The notes below the pieces were generated by a model that had not been told where the DNA came from, searched no databases, and saw nothing but the letters and a program-made list of their open reading frames with translations. A program made the position numbers and the translations under genes. Shown here piece by piece: positions 14,481-63,655 of a DNA stretch of 64,000 nucleotides; the first letter of the stretch is position 1, and the number at the start of each line of letters is the position of its first letter. This stretch comes from Owenia fusiformis (taxonomy: Eukaryota; Annelida; Polychaeta; Sabellida; Oweniidae), in contig CAIIXF020000002.1 in assembly GCA_903813345.2 (NCBI GenBank), positions 13,970,150-14,034,149 on the forward strand. Direction: 5' to 3'.

Positions 14481-16040
14481 TCCCAGTACTATTCCAGTTT
14501 TCCTGCGGAATGACAGTCCTGTTGAAATCACATTTGTCTCCATTAGGGGACTAGGTTGAGTTTCAAGGACCTACCGTACATGTCGCTCTGACCAGTTTTT
14601 ATCTCTTGCAATCAATTGCATCCCATTAGCAGGGGGGACTCCCAGTACTCTTCCAGTTTTCCTGCGGAAAGACAATCCTGTTGAAATCACATTTGTTTCC
14701 ATTAGGGGACTAGGTTGAGTTTCAAGGACCTACCGTACATGTCGCTCTGACCAGTTTTTATCTCTTGCAATCAGTTGCATCCCATTAGCAGGGGGGGAAC
14801 TCCCAGTAGTTTTTCAGTTTTCCTGCCAAAAGACAGTCCTGTTGAAATCACATTTGTCTCCATCAGGGGACTAGGTTGAGTTTAAAGGACCTACCGTACA
14901 TGTCGCTCTGACCAGTTTTATCTCTTGCAATCAGTTGCATCCCATTAGCAGGGGGGGAACTCCCAGTAGTTTTTCAGTTTTCCTGCCAAAAGACAGTCCT
15001 GTTGAAATCACATTTGTCTCCATCAGGGGACTAGGTTGAGTTTCAAGGACTTACTGTAGATGTCGCTTTTGACGAGTTTTTATCTCTTGCAATCAGTTGC
15101 ATCCCATTAGCAGGGGGCTGCTCCCAGTACTATTCTAGTTTTTCTTGGGGGGAAGTCAAACAACCAGACAACCAACCAGACAACCAACCAACCAACTTAC
15201 CGAACATCCAACCGACCAACCAATGACCCAATAGGCTTAATCTATTAACTAACTTACTTACTAACCAACCAACTAACCAACCAGACAACCACCAGACCAC
15301 CCAATAGGTTAAAACTAACCAACCAACTAACTAATTAATCAACAAACTAATCAACACTCCATCCAACGAACCAAACAACCAACGAACCAGACAAGCAACG
15401 AACCAGACAAGCAACGAACCAGATGACCAAGATCATGGATCTAGTGCTTAGTATTGTATTGTATTGTATTGTATATTTTTGTATTGTTTTGTATTGTATT
15501 GTATTGTATTGTATTTCGTTGACCAGTACTTACTCAGTAATGATTCAATTTTAAAGTTGACTTCAAGTACTACTCCAGATCTAAATTTTGAAGGTCTGAA
15601 GTCTTGTGTTCATTTTAGCTACAGTTGTAGATTGAAGGGTCTTTTCTTTTGGGTTTTCATGTTAAAATTGTGGGCTTAGTTTCGGGGTTTCTTTCTTTTT
15701 AATTGAATCATCGCTGATCTTTTCCTTAAATGTACTTTCAGGTGCAGTCCTCTTGCCTTGGAGAGAACAAAAAGAACCACAAAGGGAAAACCACAGAGAA
15801 TCTACAATTTGTGCTACCTACCTGCAGCATTTGTGATCTACATACCTCTTGCCTTGGAGAGAACAAAAAGAAACACAAAAGGAAAACCACAGAGAATCTG
15901 CAATTTGTGCTACCTATCTGCAGCATTTATATCTACATACCATCTTGTTAAAGGTACTGTAACACATAATTAGTTCTATCATTTGATGATTTTGCTCTCT
16001 GGTTCAGTACGGTTATTCCACAACGACACATTTTTCAATT

Positions 16041-18712
16041 GTAACATCTGCCCAAGCAGTTAGTTGACTTGATGATATAAATCTTGAGCCAGGAGGGGTA
16101 TAAGGCTATGACAGATTTACTAGAGTCAATGAAAGGAATGTCTTTGCATTCCCTCCTCCGCTTGTATTGGAAGTGACTCGACCAAGTTGCATCCTTGTAT
16201 TTTTCATTTTCTTATCTTGTATCTTTCAGGTACAACTATGAGAGAGATGCAGCAAACACACCAAGTTAGGGCGACAGCTGGATCAGTCTTTCGACAACTT
16301 TGAGCCATCAGGTCCGGTCCACGTAAAGAGTATCATGGGCGAGAGGTGTCTGTGTTCCTGTCACCAAAGCACCAAAGTAAGTACTTTTTTCTATTCAATT
16401 ACTACAACAGGTTAGTTCCTCTGTTTTCAGGTTCCCTTTCAGCTTGGAGATGAGGAGCCCGATGACCAACGACACAACCTAGACAACAGCTGCGTTCCTG
16501 CGTTCCTGTTACCTAAGTTAAGTATTCCTTCCTGGTTTTGCATAGGGATGGGGGGCGCCTCCCAGTTTGATATTTACTTGTGGACTTTTGTTGGCCGACC
16601 CATATTTTTGGTGGAGAAACTTGGACTCTAAGGTAAAGTGGGAGGGGGGTGGTTGGGTTTCCGGGGGATAGAGTTCATGTTTCAAAATCAAAAATATGGA
16701 AGTCTACTGGTTTATATCAAATTGGGAGAAATAAATTTTATCTTTTGTAATATTCTGTAAATTTTTAGTAGTGTAGTGTAAAGTATAGTGTAAAGTTTTA
16801 TGTAAAATAACAACAACTACAACATGTTTTATCTATTTGTAGCACAGATGGTGAAGTCCCTGCGAAAAGACGGTCCCGTTGGAATCACATTTTTTCCACG
16901 AGGGGACTAGGTCACGTTTCCAGAACTTACAGTAGATGTCGCATTTTGACCAGTTTTATCTCTTGCAATCAGTTGCATCCCATTAGAAGGGGGGGGGGAA
17001 CTCCCAGTACTATTCCAGTTTTCCTGCGGAATGACAGTCCTGTTGAAATCACATTTATCTCCATTAGGGGACTAGGTTGAGTTTCAAGGACTTACCGTAG
17101 ATGTCGCTTTTGACCAGTTTTCATCTCTTGCAATCAGTTGCATCCCATTAGCAGGGGGGGACTCCCAGTACTATTCCGGTTTTCGTGCGGAAGGACAGTC
17201 CTGTTGAAATCACATTTGTCTCCATTAGGGGACTAGGTTGAGTTTCAAGGACCTACCGTACATGTCGCTCTGACCAGTTTTTATCTCTTGCAATCAATTG
17301 CATCCCATTAGCAGGGGGGGGGGACTCCCAGTACTCTTTCAGGTTTCCTGCGGAAAGACAGTCCTGTTGAAATCACATTTGTCTCCATTAGGGGACTAGG
17401 TTGAGTTTCAAGGACTTACAGTAGATGTCGCATTTTGACCAGTTTTATCTCTTGCAATCAGTTGCATCCCATAAGCAGGGGGGGGGGAACTCCCAGTAAT
17501 TTTTCAGTTTTCCTGCAGAAAGACAGTCCTGTTGAAATCACATTTGTCTCCATTAGGGGACTAGGTTGAGTTTCAAGGACTAACTGTAGATGTCGCTTTT
17601 GACCAGTTTTTATCTCTTGCAATCAGTTGCATCCCATTAGCAGGGGGCTGCTCCCAGTACTATTCCAGTTTTTCTTCGGGGGAAGTTAAACAACCAGACA
17701 ACCAACCAACCAACTTACCGAACATCCAACCGACCAACCAATGACCCAATATGCTTAATCTATTAACTAACTTACTTACTAACCAACCAACTAACCAACC
17801 AGACAACCACCAGACCACCCAATAGGTTAAAACTAACCAACCAACTAACTAATTAATCAACAAACTAATCAACACTCCATCCAACGAACCAAACAACCAA
17901 CGAACCAGACAAGCAACGAACCAGACAAGCAACGAACCAGATGACCAAGATCATGGATCTAGTGCTTAGTATTGTATTGTATTGTATTGTATTGTATAGT
18001 TTTGTATTGTTTTGTTTTGTATTGTATTGTATTTCGTTGACCAGTACTTACTCAGTAATGATTCAATTTTAAAGTTGACTTCAAGTACTACTCCAGATCT
18101 AAATTTTGAAGGTCTTGAGTCTTGTGTTCATTTTAGCTACAGTTGTAGATTGAAGGGTCTTTTCTTTTGGGTTTTCATGTTAAAATTGTGGGCTTAGTTT
18201 CGGGGTTTCTTTCTTTTTAATTGAACCATCGCTGATCTTTTCCTTAAATGTACTTTCAGGTGCAGTCCTCTTGCCTTGGAGAGAACAAAAAGAAACACAA
18301 AAGGAAAACCACAGAGAATCTGCAATTTGTGCTACCTATCTGCAGCATTTATATCTACATACCATCTTGTTAAAGGTACTGTACTTTACATAAAATCTTT
18401 AAATAAAACTTTACACTATACTTTACACTACACTACTAAAAATTTAAGTAGTAATAATTAGTTCTATCATGTGATGATTTTGCTCTCTGGTTCAGTACGG
18501 TTATTCCACAACGACACATTTTTCAATTGTTGGGATTGTAATCCTATTGTTGGCACATGTATGTTTGGCAAACATTTTTTCTAAGAAATACACTAAAAGA
18601 GGACTGCCTTGATTTCACTTAATGTACAGATGTACCATGAAGCCATGTTTCATTATTTTCACATGTGGTCTGTGTTCTTAAAGAATATACATATGCTCAA
18701 CTATTCCATTCT
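16041..18712 (+). repeat. Array unit 3 (about 2.68 kb)
   Basis: Blocks: A 16,230-16,376; B 16,431-16,516; C from 16,843; D 18,260-18,375 (short form, one half only). From about 16,513 onward it is nearly identical to unit 5, sharing 'GACGGTCCCGTTGG' and 'GGTCACGTTTCCAGAAC'. Its 5' portion differs from unit 5 ('GGTGTCTGTG', 'CCTAGACAAC'), which places the duplication boundary there. Confidence 0.9.
18379..18456. repeat. Inverted, locally templated insertion (units 3 and 5)
   Basis: After block D in unit 3, 'CTTTACATAAAATCTTTAAA...' through 'CACTACTAAAAATTTAAG' is the reverse complement of the intron segment found in each unit after block B (in unit 4 'TTTTTAGTAGTGTAGTG' at about 19,435). It is absent after D in the other units. 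The copy in unit 5 (from 23,806) comes with the 5.4-kb duplication. Confidence 0.8.
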
Positions 18713-21453
18713 TCCTACAGAGTTACATCTGCCCAAGCAGTTAGTTGACTTGATGATATAAATCTTGAGCCAGGAGGGGTATAAGGCTATGACAGATTTA
18801 CTAGAGTCAATGAAAGGAATGTCTTTGCATTCCCTCCTCCGCTTGTATTGGAAGTGACTCGACCAAGTTGCATCCTTGTATTTTTCATTTTCTTATCTTG
18901 TATCTTTCAGGTACAACTATGAGAGAGATGCAGCAAACACACCAAGTTAGGGCGACAGCTGGATCAGTCTTTCGACAATTTTGAGCCATCAGGTCCGGTC
19001 GACGTAAACAGTATCATGGGCGAGAGGTGTTCGTGTTCCTGTCACCAAAGCACCAAAGTAAGTACTTTTTTCTATTCAATTATTACAACAGGTTAGTTCC
19101 TCTGTTTTCAGGTTCCCTTTCAGCTTGGAGATGAGGAGCCCGATGACCAACGACACAACCGAGACAACAGCTGCGTTCCTGCTACCTAAGTTAAGTATTC
19201 CTTCCTGGTTTTGCATAGGGATGGGGGGCGCCTCCCAGTTTGATATTTACTTGTGGACTTTTGTTGGCCGACCCATATTTTTGGTGGAGAAACTTGGACT
19301 CTAAGGTAAAGTGGGAGGGGGGTGGTTGGGTTTCCGGGGGATAGAGTTCATGTTTCAAAATCAAAAATATGGAAGTCTACTGGTTTATATCAAATTGGGA
19401 GAAATAAATTTTATCTTTTGTAATATTCTGTAAATTTTTAGTAGTGTAGTGTAAAGTATAGTGTAAAGTTTTATTTAAAGATTTGATGTAAATTTTTATG
19501 TAAAATAACAACTACTACAACATGTTTTATCTATTTGTAGCACAGATGGTGAAGTCCCTGCGAAAAGACGGTCCTGTTGGAATCACATTTTTTCCACGAG
19601 GGGACTAGGTCAAGTTTCCAGGACTTCCAGTAGATGTCGCATTTTGACCAGTTTTATCTCTTGCAATCAGTTGCATCCCATTAGAAGGGGGGGGGGAACT
19701 CCCAGTACTATTCCAGTTTTCCTGCGGAATGACAGTCCTGTTGAAATCACATTTATCTCCATTAGGGGACTAGGTTGAGTTTCAAGGACTTACCGTTGAT
19801 GTCGCTTTTGACCAGTTTTCATCTCTTGCAATCAGTTGCATCCCATTAGCAGGGGGGGACTCCCAGTACTATTCCAGTTTTCGTGCGGAAGGACGGTCCT
19901 GTTGAAATCACATTTGTCTCCATTAGGGGACTAGGTTGAGTTTCAAGGACCTACCGTACATGTCGCTCTGACCAGTTTTTATCTCTTGCAATCAATTGCA
20001 TCCCATTAGCAGGGGGGGGGACTCCCAGTTCTCTTCCAGTTTTCCTGCGGAAAGACAGTCCTGTTGAAATCACATTTGTCTCCATTAGGGGACTAGGTTG
20101 AGTTTCAAGGACTTACAGTAGATGTCGCATTTTGACCAGTTTTATCTCTTGCAATCAGTTTCATCCCATTAGCAGGGGGGGGACTCCCATTAGTTTTTCA
20201 GTTTTCCTGCAGAAAGACAGTCCTGTTGAAATCACATTTGTCCCCATTAGGGGACTAGGTTGAGTTTCAAGGACTTACTGTAGATGTCGCTTTTGACCAG
20301 TTTTTATCTCTTGCAATCAGTTGCATCCCATTAGCAGGGGGCTGCTCCCAGTACTATTCCAGTTTTTCTTCGGGGGAAGTCAAACAACCAGACAACCAAC
20401 CAACTTACCGACCATCCAACCGACCAACCAATGACCCAATAGGCTTAATCTATTAACTAACTTACTTACTAACCAACCAACTAACCAACCAGACAACCAC
20501 CAGACCACCCAATAGGTTAAAACTAACCAACCAACTAACTAATTAATCAACAAACTAATCAACACTCCATCCAACGAACCAAACAACCAACGAACCAGAC
20601 AAGCAACGAACCAGACAAGCAACGAACCAGACAAGCAACGAACCAGATGACCAAGATCATGGATCTAGTGCTTAGTATTGTATTGTATTGTATTGTTTTG
20701 TTTTGTATTGTTTTGTATTGTATTGTTTTGTATTGTATTGTATTTCGTTGACCAGTACTTACTCAGTAATGATTCAATTTTAAAGTTGATTTCAAGTACT
20801 ACTCCACATCTAAATTTTGAAGGTCTGAAGTCTTGTGTTCATTTTAGCTACAGTTGTAGATTGAAGGGTCTTTTCTTTTTGGTTTTCATGTTAAAATTGT
20901 GGGCTTAGTTTCGGGGTTTCTTTCTTTTTAATTGAACCATCGCTGATCTTTTCCTTAAATGTACTTTCAGGTGCAGTCCTCTTGCCTTGGAGAGAACAAA
21001 AAGAACCACAAAGGGAAAACCACAGAGAATCTACAATTTGTGCTACCTACCTGCAGCATTTGTGATCTACATACCTCTTGCCTTGGAGAGAACAAAAAGA
21101 AACACAAAAGGAAAACCACAGAGAATCTGCAATTTGTGCTACCTATCTGCAGTATTTATATCTACATACCATCTTGTTAAAGGTACTGTAACACATAATT
21201 AGTTCTATCATTTGATGATTTTGCTCTCTGGTTCAGTACGGTTATTCCACAACGACACATTTTTCAATTGTTGGGATTGTAATCCTATTGTTGGCACATG
21301 TATGTTTGGCAAACATTTTTTCTAAGAAATACACTAAAAGAGGACTGCCTTGATTTCACTTAATGTACAGATGTACCATGAAGCCATGTTTCATTATTTT
21401 CACATGTGGTCTGTGTTCTTAAAGAATATACATATGCTCAACTATTCCATTCT
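18713..21453 (+). repeat. Array unit 4 (about 2.74 kb)
   Basis: Blocks: A 18,911-19,057; B 19,112-19,189 (78 nt, 8-nt deletion); C from 19,551; D 20,971-21,182 (long form). It is the partner of unit 6 in the 5.4-kb duplication. The ACAAGCAACGAACCAG word is present three times before the microsatellite, against twice in unit 3. Confidence 0.9.
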
Positions 21454-24139
21454 TCCTACAGAGTTACATCTGCCCAAGCAGTTAGTTGACTTGATGATAT
21501 AAATCTTGAGCCAGGAGGGGTATAAGGCTATGACAGATTTACTAGAGTCAATGAAAGGAATGTCTTTGCATTCCCTCCTCCGCTTGTATTGGAAGTGACT
21601 CGACCAAGTTGCATCCTTGTATTTTTCATTTTCTTATCTTGTATTTTTCAGGTACAACTATGAGAGAGATGCAGCAAACACACCAAGTTAGGGCGACAGC
21701 TGGATCAGTCTTTCGACAATTTTGAGCCATCAGGTCCGGTCGACGTAAACAGTATCATGGGCGAGAGGTGTTCGTGTTCCTGTCACCAAAGCACCAAAGT
21801 AAGTACTTTTTTCTATTCAATTATTACAACAGGTTAGTTCCTCTGTTTTCAGGTTCCCTTTCAGCTTGGAGATGAGGAGCCCGATGACCAACGACACAAC
21901 CGAGACAACAGCTGTGTTCCTGCGTTCCTGCTACCTAAGTTAAGTATTCCTTCCTGGTTTTGCATAGGGATGGGGGGCGCCTCCCAGTTTGATATTTACT
22001 TGTGGACTTTTGTTGGCCGACCCATATTTTTGGTGGAGAAACTTGGACTCTAAGGTAAAGTGGGAGGGGGGTGGTTGGGTTTCCGGGGGATAGAGTTCAT
22101 GTTTCAAAATCAAAAATATGGAAGTCTACTGGTTTATATCAAATTGGGAGAAATAAATTTTATCTTTTGTAATATTCTGTAAATTTTTAGTAGTGTAGTG
22201 TAAAGTATAGTGTAAAGTTTTATGTAAAATAACAACAACTACAACATGTTTTATCTATTTGTAGCACAGATGGTGAAGTCCCTGCGAAAAGACGGTCCCG
22301 TTGGAATCACATTTTTTCCACGAGGGGACTAGGTCACGTTTCCAGAACTTACAGTAGATGTCGCATTTTGACCAGTTTTATCTCTTGCAATCAGTTGCAT
22401 CCCATTAGAAGGGGGGGGGGAACTCCCAGTACTATTCCAGTTTTCCTGCGGAATGACAGTCCTGTTGAAATCACATTTATCTCCATTAGGGGACTAGGTT
22501 GAGTTTCAAGGACTTACCGTAGATGTCGCTTTTGACCAGTTTTCATCTCTTGCAATCAGTTGCATCCCATTAGCAGGGGGGGACTCCCAGTACTATTCCG
22601 GTTTTCGTGCGGAAGGACAGTCCTGTTGAAATCACATTTGTCTCCATTAGGGGACTAGGTTGAGTTTCAAGGACCTACCGTACATGTCGCTCTGACCAGT
22701 TTTTATCTCTTGCAATCAATTGCATCCCATTAGCAGGGGGGGGGGACTCCCAGTACTCTTTCAGGTTTCCTGCGGAAAGACAGTCCTGTTGAAATCACAT
22801 TTGTCTCCATTAGGGGACTAGGTTGAGTTTCAAGGACTTACAGTAGATGTCGCATTTTGACCAGTTTTATCTCTTGCAATCAGTTGCATCCCATAAGCAG
22901 GGGGGGGGGAACTCCCAGTAATTTTTCAGTTTTCCTGCAGAAAGACAGTCCTGTTGAAATCACATTTGTCTCCATTAGGGGACTAGGTTGAGTTTCAAGG
23001 ACTAACTGTAGATGTCGCTTTTGACCAGTTTTTATCTCTTGCAATCAGTTGCATCCCATTAGCAGGGGGCTGCTCCCAGTACTATTCCAGTTTTTCTTCG
23101 GGGGAAGTTAAACAACCAGACAACCAACCAACCAACTTACCGAACATCCAACCGACCAACCAATGACCCAATATGCTTAATCTATTAACTAACTTACTTA
23201 CTAACCAACCAACTAACCAACCAGACAACCACCAGACCACCCAATAGGTTAAAACTAACCAACCAACTAACTAATTAATCAACAAACTAATCAACACTCC
23301 ATCCAACGAACCAAACAACCAACGAACCAGACAAGCAACGAACCAGACAAGCAACGAACCAGATGACCAAGATCATGGATCTAGTGCTTAGTATTGTATT
23401 GTATTGTATTGTATTGTATTGTATAGTTTTGTATTGTTTTGTTTTGTATTGTATTGTATTTCGTTGACCAGTACTTACTCAGTAATGATTCAATTTTAAA
23501 GTTGACTTCAAGTACTACTCCAGATCTAAATTTTGAAGGTCTTGAGTCTTGTGTTCATTTTAGCTACAGTTGTAGATTGAAGGGTCTTTTCTTTTGGGTT
23601 TTCATGTTAAAATTGTGGGCTTAGTTTCGGGGTTTCTTTCTTTTTAATTGAACCATCGCTGATCTTTTCCTTAAATGTACTTTCAGGTGCAGTCCTCTTG
23701 CCTTGGAGAGAACAAAAAGAAACACAAAAGGAAAACCACAGAGAATCTGCAATTTGTGCTACCTATCTGCAGCATTTATATCTACATACCATCTTGTTAA
23801 AGGTACTGTACTTTACATAAAATCTTTAAATAAAACTTTACACTATACTTTACACTACACTACTAAAAATTTAAGTAGTAATAATTAGTTCTATCATGTG
23901 ATGATTTTGCTCTCTGGTTCAGTACGGTTATTCCACAACGACACATTTTTCAATTGTTGGGATTGTAATCCTATTGTTGGCACATGTATGTTTGGCAAAC
24001 ATTTTTTCTAAGAAATACACTAAAAGAGGACTGCCTTGATTTCACTTAATGTACAGATGTACCATGAAGCCATGTTTCATTATTTTCACATGTGGTCTGT
24101 GTTCTTAAAGAATATACATATGCTCAACTATTCCATTCT
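21454..24139 (+). repeat. Array unit 5 (about 2.69 kb)
   Basis: Blocks: A 21,652-21,798; B 21,853-21,938; C from 22,265; D 23,687-23,802 (short form). From block C onward it copies unit 3, while blocks A and B resemble unit 7 (shared 'CTGTGTTCCTGCG'). It is therefore a junction unit created by the 5.4-kb duplication. Confidence 0.9.
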
Positions 24140-26880
24140 TCCTACAGAGTTACATCTGCCCAAGCAGTTAGTTGACTTGATGATATAAATCTTGAGCCAG
24201 GAGGGGTATAAGGCTATGACAGATTTACTAGAGTCAATGAAAGGAATGTCTTTGCATTCCCTCCTCCGCTTGTATTGGAAGTGACTCGACCAAGTTGCAT
24301 CCTTGTATTTTTCATTTTCTTATCTTGTATCTTTCAGGTACAACTATGAGAGAGATGCAGCAAACACACCAAGTTAGGGCGACAGCTGGATCAGTCTTTC
24401 GACAATTTTGAGCCATCAGGTCCGGTCGACGTAAACAGTATCATGGGCGAGAGGTGTTCGTGTTCCTGTCACCAAAGCACCAAAGTAAGTACTTTTTTCT
24501 ATTCAATTATTACAACAGGTTAGTTCCTCTGTTTTCAGGTTCCCTTTCAGCTTGGAGATGAGGAGCCCGATGACCAACGACACAACCGAGACAACAGCTG
24601 CGTTCCTGCTACCTAAGTTAAGTATTCCTTCCTGGTTTTGCATAGGGATGGGGGGCGCCTCCCAGTTTGATATTTACTTGTGGACTTTTGTTGGCCGACC
24701 CATATTTTTGGTGGAGAAACTTGGACTCTAAGGTAAAGTGGGAGGGGGGTGGTTGGGTTTCCGGGGGATAGAGTTCATGTTTCAAAATCAAAAATATGGA
24801 AGTCTACTGGTTTATATCAAATTGGGAGAAATAAATTTTATCTTTTGTAATATTCTGTAAATTTTTAGTAGTGTAGTGTAAAGTATAGTGTAAAGTTTTA
24901 TTTAAAGATTTGATGTAAATTTTTATGTAAAATAACAACTACTACAACATGTTTTATCTATTTGTAGCACAGATGGTGAAGTCCCTGCGAAAAGACGGTC
25001 CTGTTGGAATCACATTTTTTCCACGAGGGGACTAGGTCAAGTTTCCAGGACTTCCAGTAGATGTCGCATTTTGACCAGTTTTATCTCTTGCAATCAGTTG
25101 CATCCCATTAGAAGGGGGGGGGGAACTCCCAGTACTATTCCAGTTTTCCTGCGGAATGACAGTCCTGTTGAAATCACATTTATCTCCATTAGGGGACTAG
25201 GTTGAGTTTCAAGGACTTACCGTTGATGTCGCTTTTGACCAGTTTTCATCTCTTGCAATCAGTTGCATCCCATTAGCAGGGGGGGACTCCCAGTACTATT
25301 CCAGTTTTCGTGCGGAAGGACGGTCCTGTTGAAATCACATTTGTCTCCATTAGGGGACTAGGTTGAGTTTCAAGGACCTACCGTACATGTCGCTCTGACC
25401 AGTTTTTATCTCTTGCAATCAATTGCATCCCATTAGCAGGGGGGGGGACTCCCAGTTCTCTTCCAGTTTTCCTGCGGAAAGACAGTCCTGTTGAAATCAC
25501 ATTTGTCTCCATTAGGGGACTAGGTTGAGTTTCAAGGACTTACAGTAGATGTCGCATTTTGACCAGTTTTATCTCTTGCAATCAGTTTCATCCCATTAGC
25601 AGGGGGGGGACTCCCATTAGTTTTTCAGTTTTCCTGCAGAAAGACAGTCCTGTTGAAATCACATTTGTCCCCATTAGGGGACTAGGTTGAGTTTCAAGGA
25701 CTTACTGTAGATGTCGCTTTTGACCAGTTTTTATCTCTTGCAATCAGTTGCATCCCATTAGCAGGGGGCTGCTCCCAGTACTATTCCAGTTTTTCTTCGG
25801 GGGAAGTCAAACAACCAGACAACCAACCAACTTACCGACCATCCAACCGACCAACCAATGACCCAATAGGCTTAATCTATTAACTAACTTACTTACTAAC
25901 CAACCAACTAACCAACCAGACAACCACCAGACCACCCAATAGGTTAAAACTAACCAACCAACTAACTAATTAATCAACAAACTAATCAACACTCCATCCA
26001 ACGAACCAAACAACCAACGAACCAGACAAGCAACGAACCAGACAAGCAACGAACCAGACAAGCAACGAACCAGATGACCAAGATCATGGATCTAGTGCTT
26101 AGTATTGTATTGTATTGTATTGTTTTGTTTTGTATTGTTTTGTATTGTATTGTTTTGTATTGTATTGTATTTCGTTGACCAGTACTTACTCAGTAATGAT
26201 TCAATTTTAAAGTTGATTTCAAGTACTACTCCACATCTAAATTTTGAAGGTCTGAAGTCTTGTGTTCATTTTAGCTACAGTTGTAGATTGAAGGGTCTTT
26301 TCTTTTTGGTTTTCATGTTAAAATTGTGGGCTTAGTTTCGGGGTTTCTTTCTTTTTAATTGAACCATCGCTGATCTTTTCCTTAAATGTACTTTCAGGTG
26401 CAGTCCTCTTGCCTTGGAGAGAACAAAAAGAACCACAAAGGGAAAACCACAGAGAATCTACAATTTGTGCTACCTACCTGCAGCATTTGTGATCTACATA
26501 CCTCTTGCCTTGGAGAGAACAAAAAGAAACACAAAAGGAAAACCACAGAGAATCTGCAATTTGTGCTACCTATCTGCAGTATTTATATCTACATACCATC
26601 TTGTTAAAGGTACTGTAACACATAATTAGTTCTATCATTTGATGATTTTGCTCTCTGGTTCAGTACGGTTATTCCACAACGACACATTTTTCAATTGTTG
26701 GGATTGTAATCCTATTGTTGGCACATGTATGTTTGGCAAACATTTTTTCTAAGAAATACACTAAAAGAGGACTGCCTTGATTTCACTTAATGTACAGATG
26801 TACCATGAAGCCATGTTTCATTATTTTCACATGTGGTCTGTGTTCTTAAAGAATATACATATGCTCAACTATTCCATTCT
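24140..26880 (+). repeat. Array unit 6 (about 2.74 kb)
   Basis: Blocks: A 24,338-24,484; B 24,539-24,616 (8-nt deletion as in unit 4); C from 24,978; D 26,398-26,609. I found no difference from unit 4 at a constant offset of 5,427. Confidence 0.9.
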
Positions 26881-29606
26881 TCCTACAGAGTTACATCTGC
26901 CCAAGCAGTTAGTTGACTTGATGATATAAATCTTGAGCCAGGAGGGGTATAAGGCTATGACAGATTTACTAGAGTCAATGAAAGGAATGTCTTTGCATTC
27001 CCTCCTCCGCTTGTATTGGAAGTGACTCGACCAAGTTGCATCCTTGTATTTTTCATTTTCTTATCTTGTATTTTTCAGGTACAACTATGAGAGAGATGCA
27101 GCAAACACACCAAGTTAGGGCGACAGCTGGATCAGTCTTTCGACAATTTTGAGCCATCAGGTCCGGTCGACGTAAACAGTATCATGGGCGAGAGGTGTTC
27201 GTGTTCCTGTCACCAAAGCACCAAAGTAAGTACTTTTTTCTATTCAATTATTACAACAGGTTAGTTCCTCTGTTTTCAGGTTCCCTTTCAGCTTGGAGAT
27301 GAGGAGCCCGATGACCAACGACACAACCGAGACAACAGCTGTGTTCCTGCGTTCCTGCTACCTAAGTTAAGTATTCCTTCCTGGTTTTGCATAGGGATGG
27401 GGGGCGCCTCCCAGTTTGATATTTACTTGTGGACTTTTGTTGGCCGACCCATATTTTTGGTGGAGAAACTTGGACTCTAAGGTAAAGTGGGAGGGGGGTG
27501 GTTGGGTTTCCGGGGGATAGAGTTCATGTTTCAAAATCAAAAATATGGAAGTCTACTGGTTTATATCAAATTGGGAGAAATAAATTTTATCTTTTGTAAT
27601 ATTCTGTAAATTTTTAGTAGTGTAGTGTAAAGTATAGTGTAAAGTTTTATTTAAAGATTTGATGTAAATTTTTATGTAAAATAACAACTACTACAACATG
27701 TTTTATCTATTTGTAGCACAGATGGTGAAGTCCCTGCGAAAAGACGGTCCTGTTGGAATCACATTTTTTCCACGAGGGGACTAGGTCAAGTTTCCAGGAC
27801 TTCCAGTAGATGTCGCATTTTGACCAGTTTTATCTCTTGCAATCAGTTGCATCCCATTAGAAGGGGGGGGGTAACTCCCAGTACTATTCCAGTTTTCCTG
27901 CGGAATGACAGTCCTGTTGAAATCACATTTATCTCCATTAGGGGACTAGGTTGAGTTTCAAGGACTTACCGTTGATGTCGCTTTTGACCAGTTTTCATCT
28001 CTTGAATTCAGTTGCATCCCATTAGCAGGGGGGGGGACTCCCAGTACTATTCCAGTTTTCGTGCGGAAGGACGGTCCTGTTGAAATCACATTTGTCTCCA
28101 TCAGGGGACTAGGTTGAGTTTCAAGGACCTACCGTACATGTCGCTCTGACCAGTTTTTATCTCTTGCAATCAATTGCATCCCATAAGCAGGGGGGGGGGG
28201 ACTCCCAGTACTCTTCCAGTTTTCCTGCGGAAAGACAGTCCTGTTGAAATCACATTTGTCTCCATTAGGGGACTAGGTTGAGTTTCAAGGACTTACAGTA
28301 GATGTCGCATTTTGACCAATTTTATCTCTTGCAATCAGTTTCATCCCATTAGCAGGGGGGGACTCCCATTAGTTTTTCAGTTTTCCTGCAGAAAGACAGT
28401 CCTGTTGAAATCACATTTGTCCCCATTAGGGGACTAGGTTGAGTTTCAAGGACTTACTGTAGATGTCGCTTTTGACCAGTTTTTATCTCTTCCAATCAGT
28501 TGCATCCCATTAGCAGGGGGCTGCTCCCAGTACTATTCCAGTTTTTCTTCGGGGGAAGTCAAACAACCAGACAACCAACCAACTTACCGACCATCCAACC
28601 GACCAACCAATGACCCAATAGGCTTAATCTATTAACTAACTTACTTACTAACCAACCAACTAACCAACCAGACAACCACCAGACCACCCAATAGGTTAAA
28701 ACTAACCAACCAACTAACTAATTAATCAACAAACTAATCAACACTCCATCCAACGAACCAAACAACCAACGAACCAGACAAGCAACGAACCAGACAAGCA
28801 ACGAACCAGATGACCAAGATCATGGATCTAGTGCTTAGTATTGTATTGTATTGTATTGTTTTGTATTGTTTTGTTTTGTTTTGTATTGTATTGTATTTCG
28901 TTGACCAGTACTTACTCAGTAATGATTCAATTTTAAAGTTGATTTCAAGTACTACTCCACATCTAAATTTTGAAGGTCTGAAGTCTTGTGTTCATTTTAG
29001 CTACAGTTGTAGATTGAAGGGTCTTTTCTTTTGGGTTTTCATGTTAAAATTGTGGGCTTAGTTTCGGGGTTTCTTTCTTTTTAATTGAACCATCGCTGAT
29101 CTTTTCCTTAAATGTACTTTCAGGTGCAGTCCTCTTGCCTTGGAGAGAACAAAAAGAACCACAAAGGGAAAACCACAGAGAATCTACAATTTGTGCTACC
29201 TACCTGCAGCATTTGTGATCTACATACCTCTTGCCTTGGAGAGAACAAAAAGAAACACAAAAGGAAAACCACAGAGAATCTGCAATTTGTGCTACCTATC
29301 TGCAGTACTTATATCTACATACCATCTTGTTAAAGGTACCGTAACACATAATTAGTTCTATCATTTGATGATTTTGCTCTCTGGTTCAGTACGGTTATTC
29401 CACAACGACACATTTTTCAATTGTTGGGATTGTAATCCTATTGTTGGCACATGTATGTTTGGCAAACATTTTTTCTAAGAAATACACTAAAAGAGGACTG
29501 CCTTGATTTCACTTAATGTACAGATGTACCATGAAGCCATGTTTCATTATTTTCACATGTGGTCTGTGTTCTTAAAGAATATACATATGCTCAACTATTC
29601 CATTCT
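26881..29606 (+). repeat. Array unit 7 (about 2.73 kb)
   Basis: Blocks: A 27,079-27,225; B 27,280-27,365; C from 27,717; D 29,124-29,335. The first part equals unit 5. From about 27,645 it follows the unit 4/6 type with its own changes ('CTCTTGAATTCAG', 'CCATAAGCAGG'), so it is an older relative rather than part of the recent duplication. Confidence 0.9.
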
Positions 29607-31500
29607 TCCTACAGAGTTACATCTGCCCAAGCAGTTAGTTGACTTGATGATATAAATCTTGAGCCAGGAGGGGTATAAGGCTATGACATATTTACTAGAG
29701 TCAATGAAAGGAATGTCTTTGCATTCCCTCCTCCGCTTGTATTGGAAGTGACTCGACCAAGTTGCATCCTTGTATTTTTCATTTTCTTATCTTGTATCTT
29801 TCAGGTACAACTATGAGAGAGATGCAGCAAACACACCAACTTTGAGCCATCAGGTCCGGTCGACGTAAACAGTATCATGGGCGAGAGGTGTTCGTGTTCC
29901 TGTCACCAAAGCACCAAAGTAAGTACTTTTTTCTATTCAATTATTACAACAGGTTAGTTCCTCTGTTTTCAGGTTCCCTTTCAGCTTGGAGATGAGGAGC
30001 CCGATGACCAACGACACAACCGAGACAACAGCTGCGTTCCTGCGTTCCTGCTACCTAAGTTAAGTATTCCTTCCTGGTTTTGCATAGGGATGGGGGGCGC
30101 CTCCCAGTTTGATATTTACTTGTGGACTTTTGTTGGCCGACCCATATTTTTGGTGGAGAAACTTGGACTCTAAGGTAAAGTGGGAGGGGGGTGGTTGGGT
30201 TTCCGGGGGATAGAGTTCATGTTTCAAAATCAAAAATATGGAAGTCTACTGGTTTATATCAAATTGGGAGAAATAAATTTTATCTTTTGTAATATTCTGT
30301 AAATTTTTAGTAGTGTAGTGTAAAGTATAGTGTAAAGTTTTATTTAAAGTTTTTTATGTAAAGTTTTATGTAAAATAACAACTACTACAACATGTTTTAT
30401 CTATTTGTAGCACAGATGGTGAAGTCCCTGCGAAAAGACGGTCCTGTTGGAATCACATTTTTTCCACGAGGGGACTAGTTTGAGTTTCAAGGAATTACCG
30501 TAGATCTTGCTTTTGACCAGTTTTATCTCTTGCAATCAGTTGCATCCCACTAGCAGGGGGCTGCTCCCAGTACTATTTCAGTTTTTCTTAGAGGGGGGGG
30601 GTGTCAAACAACCAGACAACCAACCAACTGGACATCCAACCGACCATCCAATGACCCAACAGGCTTAATCTATTAACCAACTTACTTACTAACCAACCAA
30701 CTAACCAACCGGACAACCACCAGACCACCCAATAGGTTAAAACTAACCAACCAACTAACTAATTAATCAACCAACTAACCAACACTCCATCCAACGAACC
30801 AAACAACCAACAAACCAGACAACCAACGAACCAGATGACCAAGATCGTGGATCTAGTGCTTAGTATTGTATTGTATAGTTTTGTTTTGAATTGTATTGTA
30901 TTTCATTAACCAATACTTACTCAGTGATGATTCAATTTTAAAATTGACTTCAAACTACTACTCCAGATCTAAATTTTGAAGGTCTGAAGTCTTGTGTTCA
31001 TTTTAGCTACAGTTGTAGATTGAAGGGTCTTTTCTTTTGGGTTTTCATGTTAAAATTGTGGGCTTAATTTCGGGGTTTTCTTTCTTTTTAATTGAACCAT
31101 CGCTGATCTTTTCCTTAAATGTACTTTCAGGTGCAGTCCTCTTGCCTTGGAACAAAAAGAACCACAAAGGGAAAACCACATAGAATCTACAATTTGTGCT
31201 ACCTATCTGCAGCATTTGTATCGACATAGCATCTTGTTCAAGGTACTGTAACAAATAATCAGTTCTATCATTTGATGATTTTGCTCTCTGGTTCAGTACG
31301 GTTATTCCACAACGACACATTTTTCAATTGTTGAGATTCTTATTCCATTGTTAGCACATGTATGTCTGGCAAACATTTTTGTCTAAGACATGAATGATGA
31401 CTTCCTTGATTTCATTTAATGTACGAATGTAGCATGAAGCCATGATTCATTTTTTCACATGTGGTCTTTCATGCTTAGGTGAATAATCATACCTACTGCA
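29607..31500 (+). repeat. Array unit 8, truncated and diverged (about 1.9 kb)
   Basis: Blocks: A 29,815-29,918 (43 bases missing); B 29,973-30,058; C from 30,411; D 31,131-31,242 (short, diverged). The 165-bp repeats have collapsed to one hybrid copy, and the TTGTA tract is short. Its greater divergence fits an edge unit. The minus-strand frame at 31,045-31,320 runs through non-coding parts and is not a gene. Confidence 0.85.
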
Positions 31501-48650: not shown

Positions 48651-49533
48651 GTAAAATTCATCAATCGACCTTGAGAGAAATATTGAGATCTATACAAGGT
48701 ACGACTGCTCGTCTAGACATTTCGTCTAGAGTGAAATGTAAAGCAGAGCTTTATGACAAATTAGATACTCAATATCTCACGAAAAGAATTACCACTCAAC
48801 AAGTTCTTCGTAGAGCAATTGCAAGAATGTATCTTTTAACGTCTCTCAAATTAACAAGCAACACGCTGCTACCAGCGTGACGTTAGATCGATTCGAAAAT
48901 TGACATTTCGTCTAGAGCGCAATTTAAATCAGAGCTTGACGACAAATCCTACAAATCAGATACTCTATATCTGACGAATAGAATGACCAATCAATAAGTC
49001 CTTGGTAGGGCAAATGTAAAAATGTATCCTTAAACATCTCACTAATTCGCAAATATCTTGCTGCCACCAGCGTTACGTACGACTGGTCCGAAAATTGACA
49101 TTTCGTCCAGAGCACAAACTGCATCAGAGATTTAAGACGAAATAGATATAAGATATATCACCAACAGGAACATCATTCATTAAATCCATTTAAAAGCATA
49201 CTTTAAAATATTCACTTAAACGTCTCACAAAATAGCAAAGGACTGGCTAATAGCAGTGTGACTAACATCTGGTCGGAAAATTGACATTTCGTCTAGAGCG
49301 CAAACTGCATAAGCGATTTAATACGAATTGGATATTATATATCTCCCAACAGAAAAGTCAACCAAGACATCCATCCTATAACAAACGTAAAAAATATACA
49401 TAAACGTCTTACAAAATATTAAACTAGTCACTGCTACCAGCGCGATGTACAACTGGTCCGAAAATTGACATTCCGTACAGAGGGCAATTGCAAAAAAATA
49501 TAATGAAACGTCAAATCAGCAAAGGACTAACTA

Positions 49534-59009: not shown

Positions 59010-61240
59010 TTGTAAAAATGTATCCTTAAACATCTCAATAATTAGCAAATATCATGCTGCTACCAGCGCTACGTACGACTGGTCCGAAAATTGACATTTC
59101 GTCCATGCCAGTGCACAAACTGCATCAGAGATTTTAGACGAATTAGATATAAAATATATCACGAACGGGAACATCATTCATTAAATCCATTTAAGAGCAT
59201 ACTCAAAAATATATATTCAAACGTCTCACAAAATTGCAAAAGACTGGCTAGTACGACTGGTCGGAAATTGACATTTCGTCTAGAGCACAAACTGCATTGC
59301 GATTTAAGAAGAATTGGATATTATATATATCCCTAACAGAAAAGTCAATGAACACATCCATCATATGGCAAACGTAAAAATATACATAAACGTCTCACAA
59401 AATATCAAACTAGTCACTGCTACCAGCGCGATGTACAACTGGTCCGAAAATTGACATTCCGTACAAAGCGCAATTTAAATCAGAGCTTTACAACAAATCC
59501 TTCAAATTAGATACTCTACATCTGACGAATAGAATGACCAATCAACAAGTCCTAGGTAGGACAGATGTAAAATGTGTATCCTAAAACATCTCACTAGTTA
59601 GCAAATATCATGCTGCCACCAGCGATACGTATGACTGGTCTGACAATTGACATTTCGTCCAGAGCACAAAATGCATCAGAGATTTAAACGAATTAGATAT
59701 AAAATATATCACGAACGGGAACATCATTCATTGAATTCACTCAAGAGCATACTCCAAAATATATACTTAAATGTCTCACAAAATTGCATAGGACTAGCTA
59801 GTAGTAGTGTGACGTGCGACTGGTCTAAAATTGACATTTCGTCTAGAGCTCAAACTGCATTAGCGATCTAAGACGAATTGGATATTCTATATCTCCCTAA
59901 CAGAAAACTCAATCGACACATCAATCTAATGGCAAACGTACATAAACGTCTAAGAAAATATAAAACTAGTCGCTGCTACCAGTGCAATGTACAGCTGGTC
60001 CGAAAATTGACATTCCGTACATAGCCAAAAGTAAATCAGACTTGTATGACGAATAAGATACTCAATATCTCACGAATAGAATGACCAGTCAACAAGTCCA
60101 CGGTAGGGCAAACGTAAAAATGTATCCTCAAACATCTCAATAGTTAGCAACGTACGACTGGTCCGAAAATTTACATTCCGTCTAGAGCACAAACTGCTTC
60201 AGAGATTTAAGACGAATTAGATATAAATATATCACGAACGGGAACATCATTCATTAAATCCATTCAATTTCAATAGCATACTCAAAAATATATATTCAAA
60301 TGTCTCACAAAATTGCAAAAGACTGGCTAGTAGCAGTGTGACTTGCGACTGGTCTAAAATTATTTCGTCTAGAGCTCAAACTGCATTAGCGATCTAAGAC
60401 GAATTGGATATTATATATCTCCCTAACAGAAAACTCAATCGACACATCAATCTAATGGCAAACGTACATAAACGTCTAAGAAAATATAAAACTAGTCGCT
60501 GCCATCAGTGCAATGTACAGCTGGTCCGAAAATTGACATTCCGTACATAGCCAAAAGTAAATCAGACTTTTATGACGAATAAGATACTCAATATCTCACG
60601 AATAAAATGACCAATCAACAAGTCCACGGTAGGGCAAACGTAAAAATGTATCCTCAAACATCTCAATAGTTAGCAACGTACGACTGGTCCGAAAATTTAC
60701 ATTCCGTCCAGAGCACAAACTGCATTAGCGAACTAAGACGAATTGAATATTATATATCTCCCTAACAGAAAACTCAATCGACACATCCATTCCATGGCAA
60801 ACGTAAAAATATATACATAAACATCTAACAAAATATAAAACTAGTCGCTGCTTCCAGTGAGATGTACACCTGGTCCAAAAATTGACATTCCGTACAAAGC
60901 CAAAAGTAAATCAGACTTTTATGACAAATAAGATACTCAATATCTCAAGAATAGAATGACCAGTCAACAAGTCCACAGTAGGGCAAACGTAAAGATGTAT
61001 CTTCAAACCTCTCAATAGTTAGCAAATATCATGCTGCTACCAGCGCTACGTACTACTGGTCGGAAAATTGATATTTCGTCCAGAGCACAAATTGCATCAG
61101 AGATTTAAGACGAATTAGATAATATATATCACGAACGGGGACATCATTCATTAAATCCATTCAAGAACATACTCCAAAATATATACTCAAACGTCTCACA
61201 GAATTGCAAAGGACTGGCTAGTAGCAGTGTGACGTACGTA
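59010..61240 (+). repeat. Best-preserved satellite block with B-C-A order
   Basis: Monomer marks at 59,091 (B), 59,268 (C), 59,451 (A), 59,647 (B), 59,831 (C), 60,007 (A), 60,170 (B), 60,358 (C), 60,533 (A), 60,697 (B/C hybrid), 60,882 (A) and 61,069 (B). The 60,697 monomer starts as B ('GTCCAGAGCACAAACTGCAT') and continues as C ('TTATATATCTCCCTAACAGA'), as expected from unequal crossing-over between monomers. Confidence 0.85.
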
Positions 61241-61308
61241 CGTAAATTCAAAAACTATCAAAAGATGAATTTCAATATTCATGAATCATAATTTACTTTG
61301 ACCTGAAG

Positions 61309-61380
61309 GCACTGATGGTTCAGTGGTAGTTTGATCTCCTGTCATGCAGCTGGTTTGTGATTCGATTCCTAGCCAGTGCA
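61309..61380 (+). pseudogene. tRNA-Gly-like copy 1 (isolated)
   Basis: Six of seven acceptor pairs form (GCACTGA with CCAGTGC). 'GATCTCCTGTCATGCAGC' replaces the anticodon arm. B box 'GATTCGATTCC' is one base off GGTTCGATTCC. It is separated from copy 2 by about 510 bases of other DNA. Confidence 0.7.
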
Positions 61381-61893
61381 ATGTTTTTTTTTAAATAGAC
61401 TAGATGCGAGTAGACATAATCTTGATTTACGTCATTAAATATTCAAAATTCAGTCAAAGTAATGTCATATTTGAAATCTACATGTAAAAGTACATCTAGA
61501 AATATGGTTTCGAAAATTGTTTATCAACTTTGAAAATTAAATTTTTTTTGAAAGTTTGACTTCTCGTTCGGGTTGATTCCCCATGCACCCAATGTTACAA
61601 AATCACAAAAAGTGAAATATCTTTTCTTGTATTGGATGGATAACATTTTCTTTTACTGGACATATTTTAATTTGCATAACTATTAGATACATAAGGGTTA
61701 TATGAAAATTGAATCACTAAAACAAATGTAATTTGATTTAAAGGGAACTTTCTGCTATACCCGCCATGCTATCTGACCCGAACGAGCCACCTGGTGGTGA
61801 AACTGGTAAATACCTACTCGCAACTGCGTTATTGAAGAACTACCATGAGATGAATTACAATACTCATGAATCATAATTTACTTTTACCTAAAG
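61381..61893. other. Insertion between tRNA-like copies 1 and 2
   Basis: About 440 bases more than the normal spacer. 'TCTCGTTCGGGTTGATTCC' near 61,561 and 'TGACCCGAACGAG' near 61,773 are partly complementary. No frame or known element. Confidence 0.4.
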
Positions 61894-62776
61894 GCACTGA
61901 TGGTTCAGTGGTAGTATGCTCGCCTGTCATGTAGCTGACTATGATTCGATTCCTGGCCAGCGTAATGTTGTTTTTTTAATTTTAAAACTGATACGAGATG
62001 AATTACAATATTCATGAATCATAACTTAATTTAACCTAAAGGCACTTATGGTTCAGTGGTAGTGTGATCCCCTGTCATGCAGCTGGCTATGATTCGATTC
62101 CTGGCCAGTGCAATGTTTTTTTTAATTCAAAAACGGACATAAGATGAATTACAATATTCAGGAATCATAATTTAGTGTTAACCAGAAGGCACTGATGGTT
62201 CAGTGGTTCTATGCTCGCCTGTCATGCGACTGGCTATGATTCGATACCAGGGCAGTACTATGTTTTTTTAAACTTAAAAACTGATATAAGGTGAATTACA
62301 ATATTCATGAATCATAAATTAGTTTGACCTGAAGGCACTGTTGCTTCAGTGGTAGTATGATCGCCTTTCATGCAGATGGCTATGATTTGATTCCTGGCCA
62401 GTGCAATGTTTTTTTTTTAAATTTAAGAACTACCACAAGATATATTACAATATTCATGAATCATAATTTAGTTTAACCTGAAGGCACTGATGGTTCAGTG
62501 GTAGTTTGCTCGCCTGTCATGCAGCTGGCTATGATTCGATTCCTGGCCAGTGCGATGTTTTTTTTAATTCGAAAACGGACATAAGATGAATAACAATATT
62601 CAGGAATCATAATTTAGTGTTAACCAGAAGGCACTGATGTTTCATCGGTAGAATGCGCGCCTGTCATGCAGCTAGCTATGATTCGATTCCTGGCCAGTGC
62701 TATGCTTTTTTAAATTTAAAAACTAATATAAGATGAATGACTATATTCATGAATCATAATTTGGTTTAACCCGATA

Positions 62777-62826
62777 GGATTGGTGGTTCAGTGTCAGTAT
62801 GCTCGCTTGTCATGCAGCTGGCTATA
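62777..62826 (+). pseudogene. tRNA-Gly-like copy 8, 3'-truncated
   Basis: It begins 'GGATTGGTGGTTCAGTGTCAG' and stops after 'CAGCTGGCTAT', losing the T arm, B box and 3' acceptor strand. This shortens the step to the next copy to 110 bp. Confidence 0.75.
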
Positions 62827-63328
62827 TTTAAACTGACATAAGATGAATTAGATTATTCATGAATCATAATTTTGTTTTATCTGAAGGCACAGGTGGTTCA
62901 GTGGTTCTATGCTCGCCTGTCATGCAGCTGTCTATGATTCGATTCCAGGCCAGTGCAATGTGTTTTTAAATTTGAAAACTGACATAAGATGAATTAGAAT
63001 ATTCATGAATCATAATTTAGTTTTACCTGAAGGCACTGGTGGTTCAGTGGTTCTATGCTCGCCTGTCATGCAGCTGGCTATGATTCGATTTCAGGCCAGT
63101 GCTATGTTTTTTTAAATCTAAAAGCTGTTATAAGATGAATTACAATATTCATGAATCATAATTTAGTTTAACACGAAAGGATTGGTGGTTCAATGTCATT
63201 ATGCTCGCTTGTCATGCAGCTTGTTATGATTCGATTCCTGGCCAGTGCAATGTGTTTTTAATTTGAAAACTGAACATAAGATGAATTAGAATATTCATGA
63301 ATCATAATTTAGTTTTACCTAGCTGAAG

Positions 63329-63399
63329 GCACTGGTGGTTCAGTGGAAGTATGCTCTCCTGTCATGCAGCTGGCTATGATTCGATTCCTGGCCAGTGCA
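63329..63399 (+). pseudogene. tRNA-Gly-like copy 12 (full acceptor stem)
   Basis: GCACTGG pairs perfectly with CCAGTGC (seven pairs) and is followed by discriminator A, as in tRNA-Gly. Copies 9 and 10 have the same 5' strand. The T stem is still mismatched (TATGA against CCTGG), so a functional tRNA is unlikely. Confidence 0.7.
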
Positions 63400-63559
63400 A
63401 TGATTTCTTTTAAATTTAAGAACTACCATGAGATGAATTACAATACTCATGAATCATAATTTACTTTTACCTAAAGGCACTGATGGTTCAGTACTACCGT
63501 ATGCTCAACTGTCATGCAGCTGGCTATGATTCGATTCCTGGCCAGTGCAATGCTTTTTT

Positions 63560-63655
63560 AAAGGAGTTGTATCGATATTGAGAACTGAATTCAACAATGT
63601 TTTTCTATTAAACCAATCATTGAAAACATTCTGTAAAAACACGTTATTTTATGTA
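63560..63655 (+). repeat. Dispersed repeat copy 2
   Basis: Matches 5,590-5,700 up to 'TTTTATGTA', where a Tc1/mariner-type end begins at TA. Confidence 0.65.

What the first reader, a model, noticed from the sequence alone, without database searches (positions are those of the whole stretch)
61309..63549. tRNA-Gly-like satellite with nucleosome-length period
Thirteen copies at 146-149 bp spacing, each with A- and B-box-like sequence and a T-run after the 3' end. The acceptor stem and D arm are kept, while the anticodon arm (GTC) and T stem have lost pairing. This is either a tRNA-derived SINE amplified in tandem or a set of Pol III-competent units, perhaps acting as a TFIIIC-bound boundary. 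The 147-bp period equals the nucleosome core length, which may be coincidence.
Basis: partly seen in the sequence, partly recalled or inferred. Interest (0 to 1): 0.8.

Follow-up and report, generated by a model that had tools for sequence, protein, structure and literature searches.

The report
Satellite DNA from a tRNA-gene array
The repeat is a satellite DNA that most likely arose when a head-to-tail row of glycine-tRNA genes decayed and multiplied on two large chromosome pieces, and a working array of the parent type and decayed relics survive elsewhere in the same genome.

Summary
The window holds 13 tRNA-Gly-like units: 9 of 12 intervals are 146-149 bp, the others 150, 110 (a truncated unit) and 585 (an insert). 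The array is one island of a satellite on contigs C2 and C11: 817 places within 1 mismatch of a 29-nt core, reversed-pattern control 0.

It is most likely not a tandem SINE. The genome has a real tRNA-Gly(GCC) gene array on C7 with a 147-bp unit, and its spacer, beyond the terminator, is homologous to the satellite spacer (0 of 1000 shuffles as good in each of four comparisons). Relic arrays on C1 and C11 branch between parent and satellite in a unit tree. tRNA-model scores are up to 66.7 bits in the parent and at most 22.5 in the window, below the 29-bit cut-off.

Lost pairing is partly CpG decay: shared substitutions hit 6 of 14 CpG bases against 2 of 56 others (P=0.0005). Evidence for constraint on A and B boxes is mixed; the strict B-box consensus is met in 0 of 13 window units against 17 of 20 parent units. 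Present Pol III or TFIIIC activity stays possible but unshown. The nucleosome-like period is that of the gene array.

The parts
61243..63560 (+). whole satellite array, from the spacer before unit 1 to the T-run after unit 13, including the insert between units 1 and 2 (ends judged by eye)
61309..61378 (+). unit 1, tRNA-Gly-like part (end set at start + 69, as for the other full units)
61395..61820 (.). extra DNA between units 1 and 2 (approximate bounds); holds 11-nt inverted repeats 61563-61573 / 61776-61786
61894..61963 (+). unit 2, tRNA-Gly-like part
62042..62111 (+). unit 3, tRNA-Gly-like part
62189..62258 (+). unit 4, tRNA-Gly-like part
62335..62404 (+). unit 5, tRNA-Gly-like part
62484..62553 (+). 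unit 6, tRNA-Gly-like part
62631..62700 (+). unit 7, tRNA-Gly-like part
62777..62830 (+). unit 8, truncated: most of the T arm, the 3' end and the T-run missing (end approximate)
62887..62956 (+). unit 9, tRNA-Gly-like part
63033..63102 (+). unit 10, tRNA-Gly-like part; best tRNA-model score of the array, 22.5 bits
63179..63248 (+). unit 11, tRNA-Gly-like part
63329..63398 (+). unit 12, tRNA-Gly-like part
63477..63546 (+). unit 13, tRNA-Gly-like part

Best explanation
The array is one island of a satellite DNA that descends from a head-to-tail array of tRNA-Gly(GCC) genes. A repeat unit of such an array (gene, T-run terminator, about 66-nt spacer; 147 bp in the surviving C7 array) lost its function. 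Its CpG-rich anticodon and T stems decayed, in good part by changes at CpG. The dead unit was then multiplied in tandem and carried between sites on C2 and C11, giving a variable C2-type (consensus 145-148 bp, the window's) and a more uniform 145-bp C11-type. Today the window's units are tRNA pseudogenes; A box, B box and T-run are mainly inherited features. Shown: descent from the tRNA-Gly array family through spacer homology and the unit tree; a CpG bias among the early substitutions; multiplication on C2 and C11. Inferred: the recombination mechanism (unequal exchange and segmental duplication), past methylation or silencing, and lack of present function.
For: Real tRNA-Gly(GCC) arrays exist at C7:34.70 Mb (L017, 147-bp unit; ARAGORN accepts 11 genes, 20 units found) and C2:29.32 Mb (L016, 150-bp unit; 18 genes, 23 units found). 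L017 spacer against the C2-type (L006), C11-type (L010), L020 and L019 spacers: z 5.9, 5.1, 6.6, 3.7, each 0 of 1000 dinucleotide shuffles as good. Shared spacer beyond the T-run points to copying at the DNA level. Tree of 105 chosen units rooted on L016: L017 a grade, then one branch (100/99) holding the C11:9.10 relic, the C1:34.01 relic, C11-type with L020, and C2-type (100/97); all satellites with L020 94/90. tRNA-model bits: L016 and L017 up to 66.7; L010 up to 44, L009 up to 40.7, nine L020 hits 34.2-42.7, L019 up to 37, window 22.5 or less. Eight substitutions from the gene are shared by both subfamilies; 6 of 14 CpG bases hit against 2 of 56 others, P=0.0005, and within bases 34-61 alone 6 of 11 against 2 of 17, P=0.03. 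Of 7 CpG sites 5 are nearly gone, 4 of them in C2-type as TG or CA. L010 shifted against itself by one unit is 92% identical.
Against: The root rests on L016, whose spacer aligns to L017 only weakly (3 of 1000 shuffles as good), and the bootstrap had not settled; the order of the two relics is weak (94/41) and L020 is not one clade. That the gene form is older rests on the same 70-nt gene standing in unrelated flanks (L018, L021). By tRNA model the C1 relic is no better than the satellites: one hit in L075 (24.1 bits), none in L074, and L020 is no better than the best C11-type units. The exact parent may be a lost sister of C7. The CpG bases cluster in the same region as the changes, and the two at 48-49 are not CpG transitions. 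The negative control L018 rests on one unit; L016 against L020 is at 22 of 1000. No transcription or methylation data; no relative species is held.
Confidence: 0.85

Rival explanations
1. A tRNA-derived SINE that was amplified in tandem.
For: tRNA-like part with A and B boxes and a T-run; SINE-derived satellites are known in squamates (PMC10702118, abstract and passages).
Against: Spacer homology to a tRNA gene array runs beyond the terminator. All 42 exact matches of a 30-nt spacer word lie in the C2 and C11 islands. An isolated-looking copy is a fragment of an array with the spacer. The eight dispersed SINE-like elements fetched (L025-L032) have another tRNA-like part and other flanks.
Confidence: 0.04
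2. The units are kept because they bind TFIIIC or are transcribed by Pol III, for example as a chromatin boundary or a source of small RNA.
For: T-run in 12 of 13 window units. In C2-type the two boxes together vary 0.67 times as much as the spacer (0.58-0.76), the B box 0.026 against 0.103 per site, rank 4 of 146 windows. In L020 the boxes vary less than the rest (permutation P 0.007, 9 distinct units). In C11-type the A box ranks 19 of 145.
Against: Strict B box in 0 of 13 window, 3 of 327 C2-type and 84 of 216 C11-type units. C2-type A box varies as much as the spacer (0.102 against 0.103); C11-type B box more than its spacer (0.109 against 0.070), both boxes together 0.92 (0.83-1.02). Site permutation P 0.064 in C2-type and 0.41 in C11-type. 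Fixed changes at non-CpG sites do not differ (P=0.45).
Confidence: 0.14
3. The 145-150-bp period was selected to fit one nucleosome core per unit.
For: Consensus lengths of the gene arrays L016 and L017 and of the satellite loci lie at 145-150 bp, although the L016 and satellite spacers are little or not alike.
Against: The period is already present in the C7 gene array; relics run at 142-145 bp (L075) and 138 bp (L074). No 9.5-11-bp AA/TT/TA periodicity in four consensuses (fraction of Markov shuffles as strong: 0.36, 0.18, 0.20, 0.47). Other tRNA genes of the genome repeat at about 365 bp (C8) or 238 bp (C7:7.13 Mb) (positions).
Confidence: 0.06
4. The array still makes a decoding tRNA, perhaps a recoded tRNA-Asp(GTC).
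For: ARAGORN calls tRNA-Asp(GTC) at 5 places in L076 and 1 in L019; some units of L009, L010, L019 and L020 pass Rfam's tRNA cut-off.
Against: 0 ARAGORN calls in the window; window scores of 22.5 bits or less; T stem paired in 672 of 1624 and anticodon stem in 891 of 1620 cells of C2-type.
Confidence: 0.02

Closest known systems
PcP190 satellite of frogs (derived from 5S rDNA)
   Same: Satellite thought to be born from a tandem Pol III gene family; unit holds a gene-like conserved part and a variable region (PMC11675491, abstract and passages).
   Different: 5S rRNA instead of tRNA; about 190 bp. Here spacer homology to a living gene array and relics are seen in one genome.
Centromeric satellite of Hoplias malabaricus and B-chromosome satellite of Plantago lagopus (both 5S-derived)
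   Same: Gene-derived satellites from a Pol III gene (titles seen in the reference list of PMC12692304).
   Different: 5S rather than tRNA; the papers themselves were not read.
PolIII/TAN of the newt, OAX / satellite I of Xenopus, Rana/polIII, Hy/polIII
   Same: Tandem repeats with a tRNA-related part (questioned there for Hy/polIII) and, for PolIII/TAN, transcription in vitro (as told in PMC10702118).
   Different: Units of about 200-360 bp (OAX longer); discussed there as possible SINE derivatives. None is described in the passage seen as descending from a tandem tRNA-gene array with shared spacer.
SINE-derived satellites of squamates
   Same: Tandem repeats, some with a tRNA-like part; gecko units of about 143 and 151 nt (PMC10702118, passages).
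   Different: Derived from SINE families.
Silenced tandem tRNA cluster (SYY) of Arabidopsis
   Same: Tandem tRNA gene cluster, silent in most tissues and highly methylated (PMC12308677, abstract): a plausible early stage.
   Different: Its genes make tRNA in root-tip cells; no satellite stage described in the abstract.

Membership tests
Satellite DNA | head-to-tail tandem non-coding units | tested here: met
   13 units in the window and 531 more in 12 fetched loci; no tRNA called in the window
Satellite DNA | several arrays in the genome, high uniformity within some | tested here: met
   islands on C2 and C11; L010 shifted by one unit 92% identical
Satellite DNA | long arrays in heterochromatin | tested here: inconclusive
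   39 of 40 300-bp samples around three C11 sites and one C2 site had no unit, so those islands are short; on C11 units run from 8.268 to about 8.292 Mb; chromatin state not testable
tRNA-derived SINE | dispersed solitary copies | tested here: not met
   all 42 exact spacer matches within the C2 and C11 islands; listed matches on C2 and C11 only, but those lists are cut; one isolated-looking place is an array fragment
tRNA-derived SINE | copies bounded by the Pol III transcript, with no shared upstream spacer | tested here: not met
   spacer homology to the C7 gene array
tRNA-derived SINE | target-site duplications | not tested
   no solitary copy was found to test
Functional tRNA gene cluster | tRNA model score above cut-off and cloverleaf pairing | tested here: not met
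   window best 22.5 bits, cut-off 29; T stem 31/65, anticodon stem 34/65 paired
Pol III-gene-derived satellite (PcP190 type) | unit homologous to a tandem gene unit of the same genome, spacer included | tested here: met
TFIIIC boundary element | intact B box | tested here: not met
   strict consensus 0 of 13 in the window; one substitution need not abolish binding
TFIIIC boundary element | TFIIIC occupancy and barrier activity | not testable with these tools
   needs ChIP and reporter assays

The most novel reading that the evidence does not exclude
A tRNA-gene array turned into a chromosome-restricted satellite in which many dead units still bind TFIIIC through a slightly altered but constrained B box, giving C2 and C11 shared clustering or chromatin-organising sites; parent array, relics and two satellite subfamilies then form an in-genome series from gene family to structural DNA.
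Probability: 0.12. Interest if true: 0.75.

Novelty: new variant of a known kind. Interest (0 to 1): 0.5.

Why it matters
The birth of a satellite is rarely caught with its source still present. Here a tRNA-Gly gene array, decayed relics and two amplified satellite subfamilies stand in one genome, tied by their spacer. It indicates that a tandem tRNA gene cluster can itself seed a satellite, offers a route to A/B-box-bearing satellites without a SINE step, and gives a direct test of whether Pol III promoters in satellites are kept or merely inherited.

Tried and rejected
Tandem SINE: rejected. Functional tRNA: rejected for the window. Promoter selection: looked for by fixed differences (2 of 25 promoter against 13 of 45 other tRNA sites, P=0.066), which fades once CpG sites are set aside (P=0.45), and by variation within arrays, which disagrees between the two subfamilies; left open, not excluded. 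Nucleosome signal by dinucleotide periodicity: none. Array length by 40 samples of 300 bp: 39 had no unit, so the islands sampled are short rather than megabase arrays. Organism: COX1 search found nothing; an 18S locus was found and partly read but could not be matched to a species; a paper search by assembly size gave no paper with that size among the 20 of 46 listed. Paper searches: (two returned no paper); in those listings I saw no paper describing a satellite derived from a tandem tRNA-gene array. The library covers open-licence papers only.

Rows dropped: units with intervals outside 125-165 bp were left out of the consensus and variation counts; identical units counted once and L076 not yet fetched; units with over 15 unaligned positions left out (1 of 328 C2-type, 1 of 23 L016). 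L020, L074 and L075 are not in the C2-type or C11-type counts. The tree used 105 units drawn by quota per locus; one row (u_L075_408) has a long branch. L001, L002 and L013-L015 overlap other sources and were not counted apart.

Full report
What is there. The array region near the window's right end (about 2.3 kb) holds 13 head-to-tail units, each a 70-nt tRNA-Gly-like part followed by a few bases, a T-run and an AT-rich spacer of about 65 nt. Intervals between the 13 starts are 585, 148, 147, 146, 149, 147, 146, 110, 146, 146, 150 and 148 bp, so the regular period holds except for an insert after unit 1 and a truncated unit 8. ARAGORN sees no tRNA in the window. Rfam's tRNA model reaches at most 22.5 bits, below the 29-bit cut-off.

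Where else. The window is C2:13970150-14034149 of a 498-Mb genome. Listed matches lie in islands on C2 (9.98-10.01, 11.23-11.29, 14.03-14.10 Mb) and C11 (8.27-8.29, 9.90-10.08, 11.86, 13.39, 13.51-13.52, 15.29 Mb). A 29-nt core is found 817 times within one mismatch, the reversed pattern never. In the 13 sources counted (window and 12 fetched loci) 250 of 544 units meet that test, which scales to roughly 1,800 copies (a crude figure, since the loci were not chosen at random). There are two subfamilies: C2-type (consensus 145-148 bp; window, L003-L008, L019, and by likeness L076) and C11-type (145 bp; L009-L012). The islands sampled are short: 39 of 40 300-bp samples around three C11 sites and one C2 site had no unit.

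Origin. The genome's own tRNA-Gly(GCC) gene differs from the window consensus at 12 of 70 sites. It occurs in unrelated flanks (L018, L021) and in two tandem arrays, C2:29.32 Mb (L016, 150-bp unit) and C7:34.70 Mb (L017, 147-bp unit). The L017 spacer aligns to the satellite spacers of L006, L010 and L020 at 46 of 64, 44 of 65 and 46 of 65 bases, and to L019 at 42 of 64, with 0 of 1000 dinucleotide shuffles as good in each. The L016 spacer is not like the C2-type spacer (798 of 1000 shuffles as good), weakly like C11-type (103), L020 (22) and L017 (3 of 1000). A control, L018, is like none of the three tested (258, 792 and 787 of 1000), but it rests on a single unit. A search with the L017 spacer found the C7 array and two relics: C1:34.01 Mb (L075, five decayed units at 142-145 bp) and C11:9.10 Mb (L074, two units 138 bp apart). 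Rooted on L016, a tree of 105 units gives L017 as a grade, then on one strong branch (100/99) the two relics (their order weak, 94/41), then C11-type with the L020 array (93/68), and C2-type as one clade (100/97); the satellites with L020 hold together at 94/90. Window units are scattered among C2-type units of other sites, so the window array is not locally homogenised.

tRNA-model bits separate genes from the rest: up to 66.7 for L016 and L017; up to 44 in L010 and 40.7 in L009; nine L020 hits at 34.2-42.7; up to 37 in L019; 22.5 or less in the window. They do not rank the relics as intermediate: one L075 unit scores 24.1 and L074 has no hit. The relics' place between parent and satellite rests on the tree and the spacer.

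How it decayed. Both subfamilies share eight substitutions from the gene, all between base 34 and base 61. Six fall on the 14 bases of CpG dinucleotides and two on the other 56 (P=0.0005). CpG and region are partly confounded; within bases 34-61 alone the count is 6 of 11 against 2 of 17 (P=0.03). Four of the six are C-to-T or G-to-A, the other two (bases 48, 49) are not. Five of the seven CpG sites of the gene are nearly absent from the satellite, four of them in C2-type as TG or CA. The gene's CpGs lie mostly in the anticodon and T stems, which helps explain why these stems lost pairing while the acceptor stem, without CpG, did less: in C2-type acceptor 1918/2255, D 883/1289, anticodon 891/1620, T 672/1624 cells paired. 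The D-stem loss in C2-type goes with a non-CpG change (base 22). CpG is depleted in the window (observed/expected 0.58) and in satellite loci (0.38 in L010, 0.48 in L007), less in the gene arrays (0.70, 0.93) and in L075 (0.81). That the arrays were methylated is inference.

Is the promoter kept? The raw pattern looks like it: in C2-type 0.085 of A-box, 0.117 of B-box, 0.105 of acceptor and 0.378 of other tRNA bases differ from the gene. Much of that contrast goes with CpG: with CpG bases set aside, fixed changes are 2 of 23 in the boxes and 6 of 33 outside (P=0.45). Variation within arrays disagrees: C2-type A box 0.102, B box 0.026, spacer 0.103, both boxes together 0.67 of the spacer (0.58-0.76); C11-type A box 0.029, B box 0.109, spacer 0.070, both boxes 0.92 (0.83-1.02). 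Site permutation gives P 0.064 (C2-type), 0.41 (C11-type) and 0.007 in the small L020 array (9 distinct units). By rank among windows of the same length: C2-type A 86 of 146, B 4 of 146; C11-type A 19 of 145, B 120 of 145. The strict B-box consensus is met in 0 of 13 window, 3 of 327 C2-type, 84 of 216 C11-type, 8 of 13 L020, 4 of 5 L075, 17 of 20 L017 and 19 of 22 L016 units. I read this as mainly inheritance, with the C2-type B box and L020 as the results that keep residual TFIIIC binding open.

The period. 147 bp is the unit of the living C7 gene array, so the satellite need not have acquired it. No 10-bp dinucleotide rhythm was found. Other tRNA genes of this genome repeat at other lengths (positions). 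Coincidence or history is enough.

Compared with what is known. The nearest kind is the satellite born from a tandem Pol III gene, known for 5S rDNA (PcP190: PMC11675491, abstract and passages; others by title in the references of PMC12692304). Tandem repeats with a tRNA-like part are known in newt and frogs, and SINE-derived satellites in squamates (PMC10702118, abstract and passages). tRNA gene and pseudogene clusters, some very large, occur in several animals (PMC2888827, passages), and a tandem tRNA cluster can be silent and methylated (PMC12308677, abstract). Harttia catfish satellites contain tRNA-derived parts (PMC11955569, passages). tRNA clusters are thought to bound chromatin domains at fission-yeast centromeres, but those genes are intact (PMC6538654, passages). 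In some searches I saw no report of a satellite traced to a tandem tRNA-gene array through its spacer; the library holds open-licence papers only. I therefore call it a new variant of a known kind.

Limits. Match lists for common repeats are cut, so restriction to C2 and C11 is shown only for the lists seen (complete for the 42 exact spacer matches; searches show only part of their matches). One isolated-looking place (C11:9902000) proved to be an array fragment with spacer and part of the neighbouring unit. The root and the order of the two relics are less sure than the rest of the tree.

Noticed in passing
61395-61820: Insert between units 1 and 2 with 11-nt perfect inverted repeats (61563-61573 / 61776-61786, 202 nt apart), like a small non-autonomous DNA element.
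   Followed up: partly
10987-30900: Repeated multi-kilobase blocks, most with about 5-7 tandem copies of a ~160-bp unit followed by CAAC-type and GTATT-type simple repeats; they recall Helentron/pearl-like elements (recalled, not tested).
   Followed up: no
60362-61025, 59068-59403, 48756-49482: Other tandem repeats (periods 171-349 bp; several share a stretch like CTGGTCCGAAAATTGACATT) lie just before the satellite array and elsewhere in the window.
   Followed up: no
L016, L017: Even the tRNA-Gly gene arrays hold recurrent damaged units: several L016 units share a 3-nt insert after GAAT or an extra GATC in the T loop, and several L017 units share deletions in the anticodon arm.
   Followed up: partly
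L025-L032: Eight dispersed elements with a different tRNA-like part share some 50 nt before that part, and most share a tail after it, so the tRNA-like part is internal, unlike a plain SINE head.
   Followed up: no
G000 C11:9.91-10.08 Mb: Listed C11-type matches are on the - strand from 9.912 to 9.976 Mb and on the + strand from about 10.017 to 10.078 Mb (one + fragment at 9.902 Mb), an inverted arrangement around 10.0 Mb.
   Followed up: no
L076, L019: A few satellite units score as tRNA-Asp(GTC) in ARAGORN (5 in L076, 1 in L019), so automatic annotation may list false tRNA-Asp genes here.
   Followed up: no
L020 (C11:11.859 Mb): A short C11-type-like array in which ARAGORN makes 8 tRNA calls: Gly(GCC) 1, Lys(CTT) 4, Ala(GGC) 1, Asn(GTT) 1, undetermined 1; drift of a dead array rather than recoding, most likely.
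   Followed up: partly
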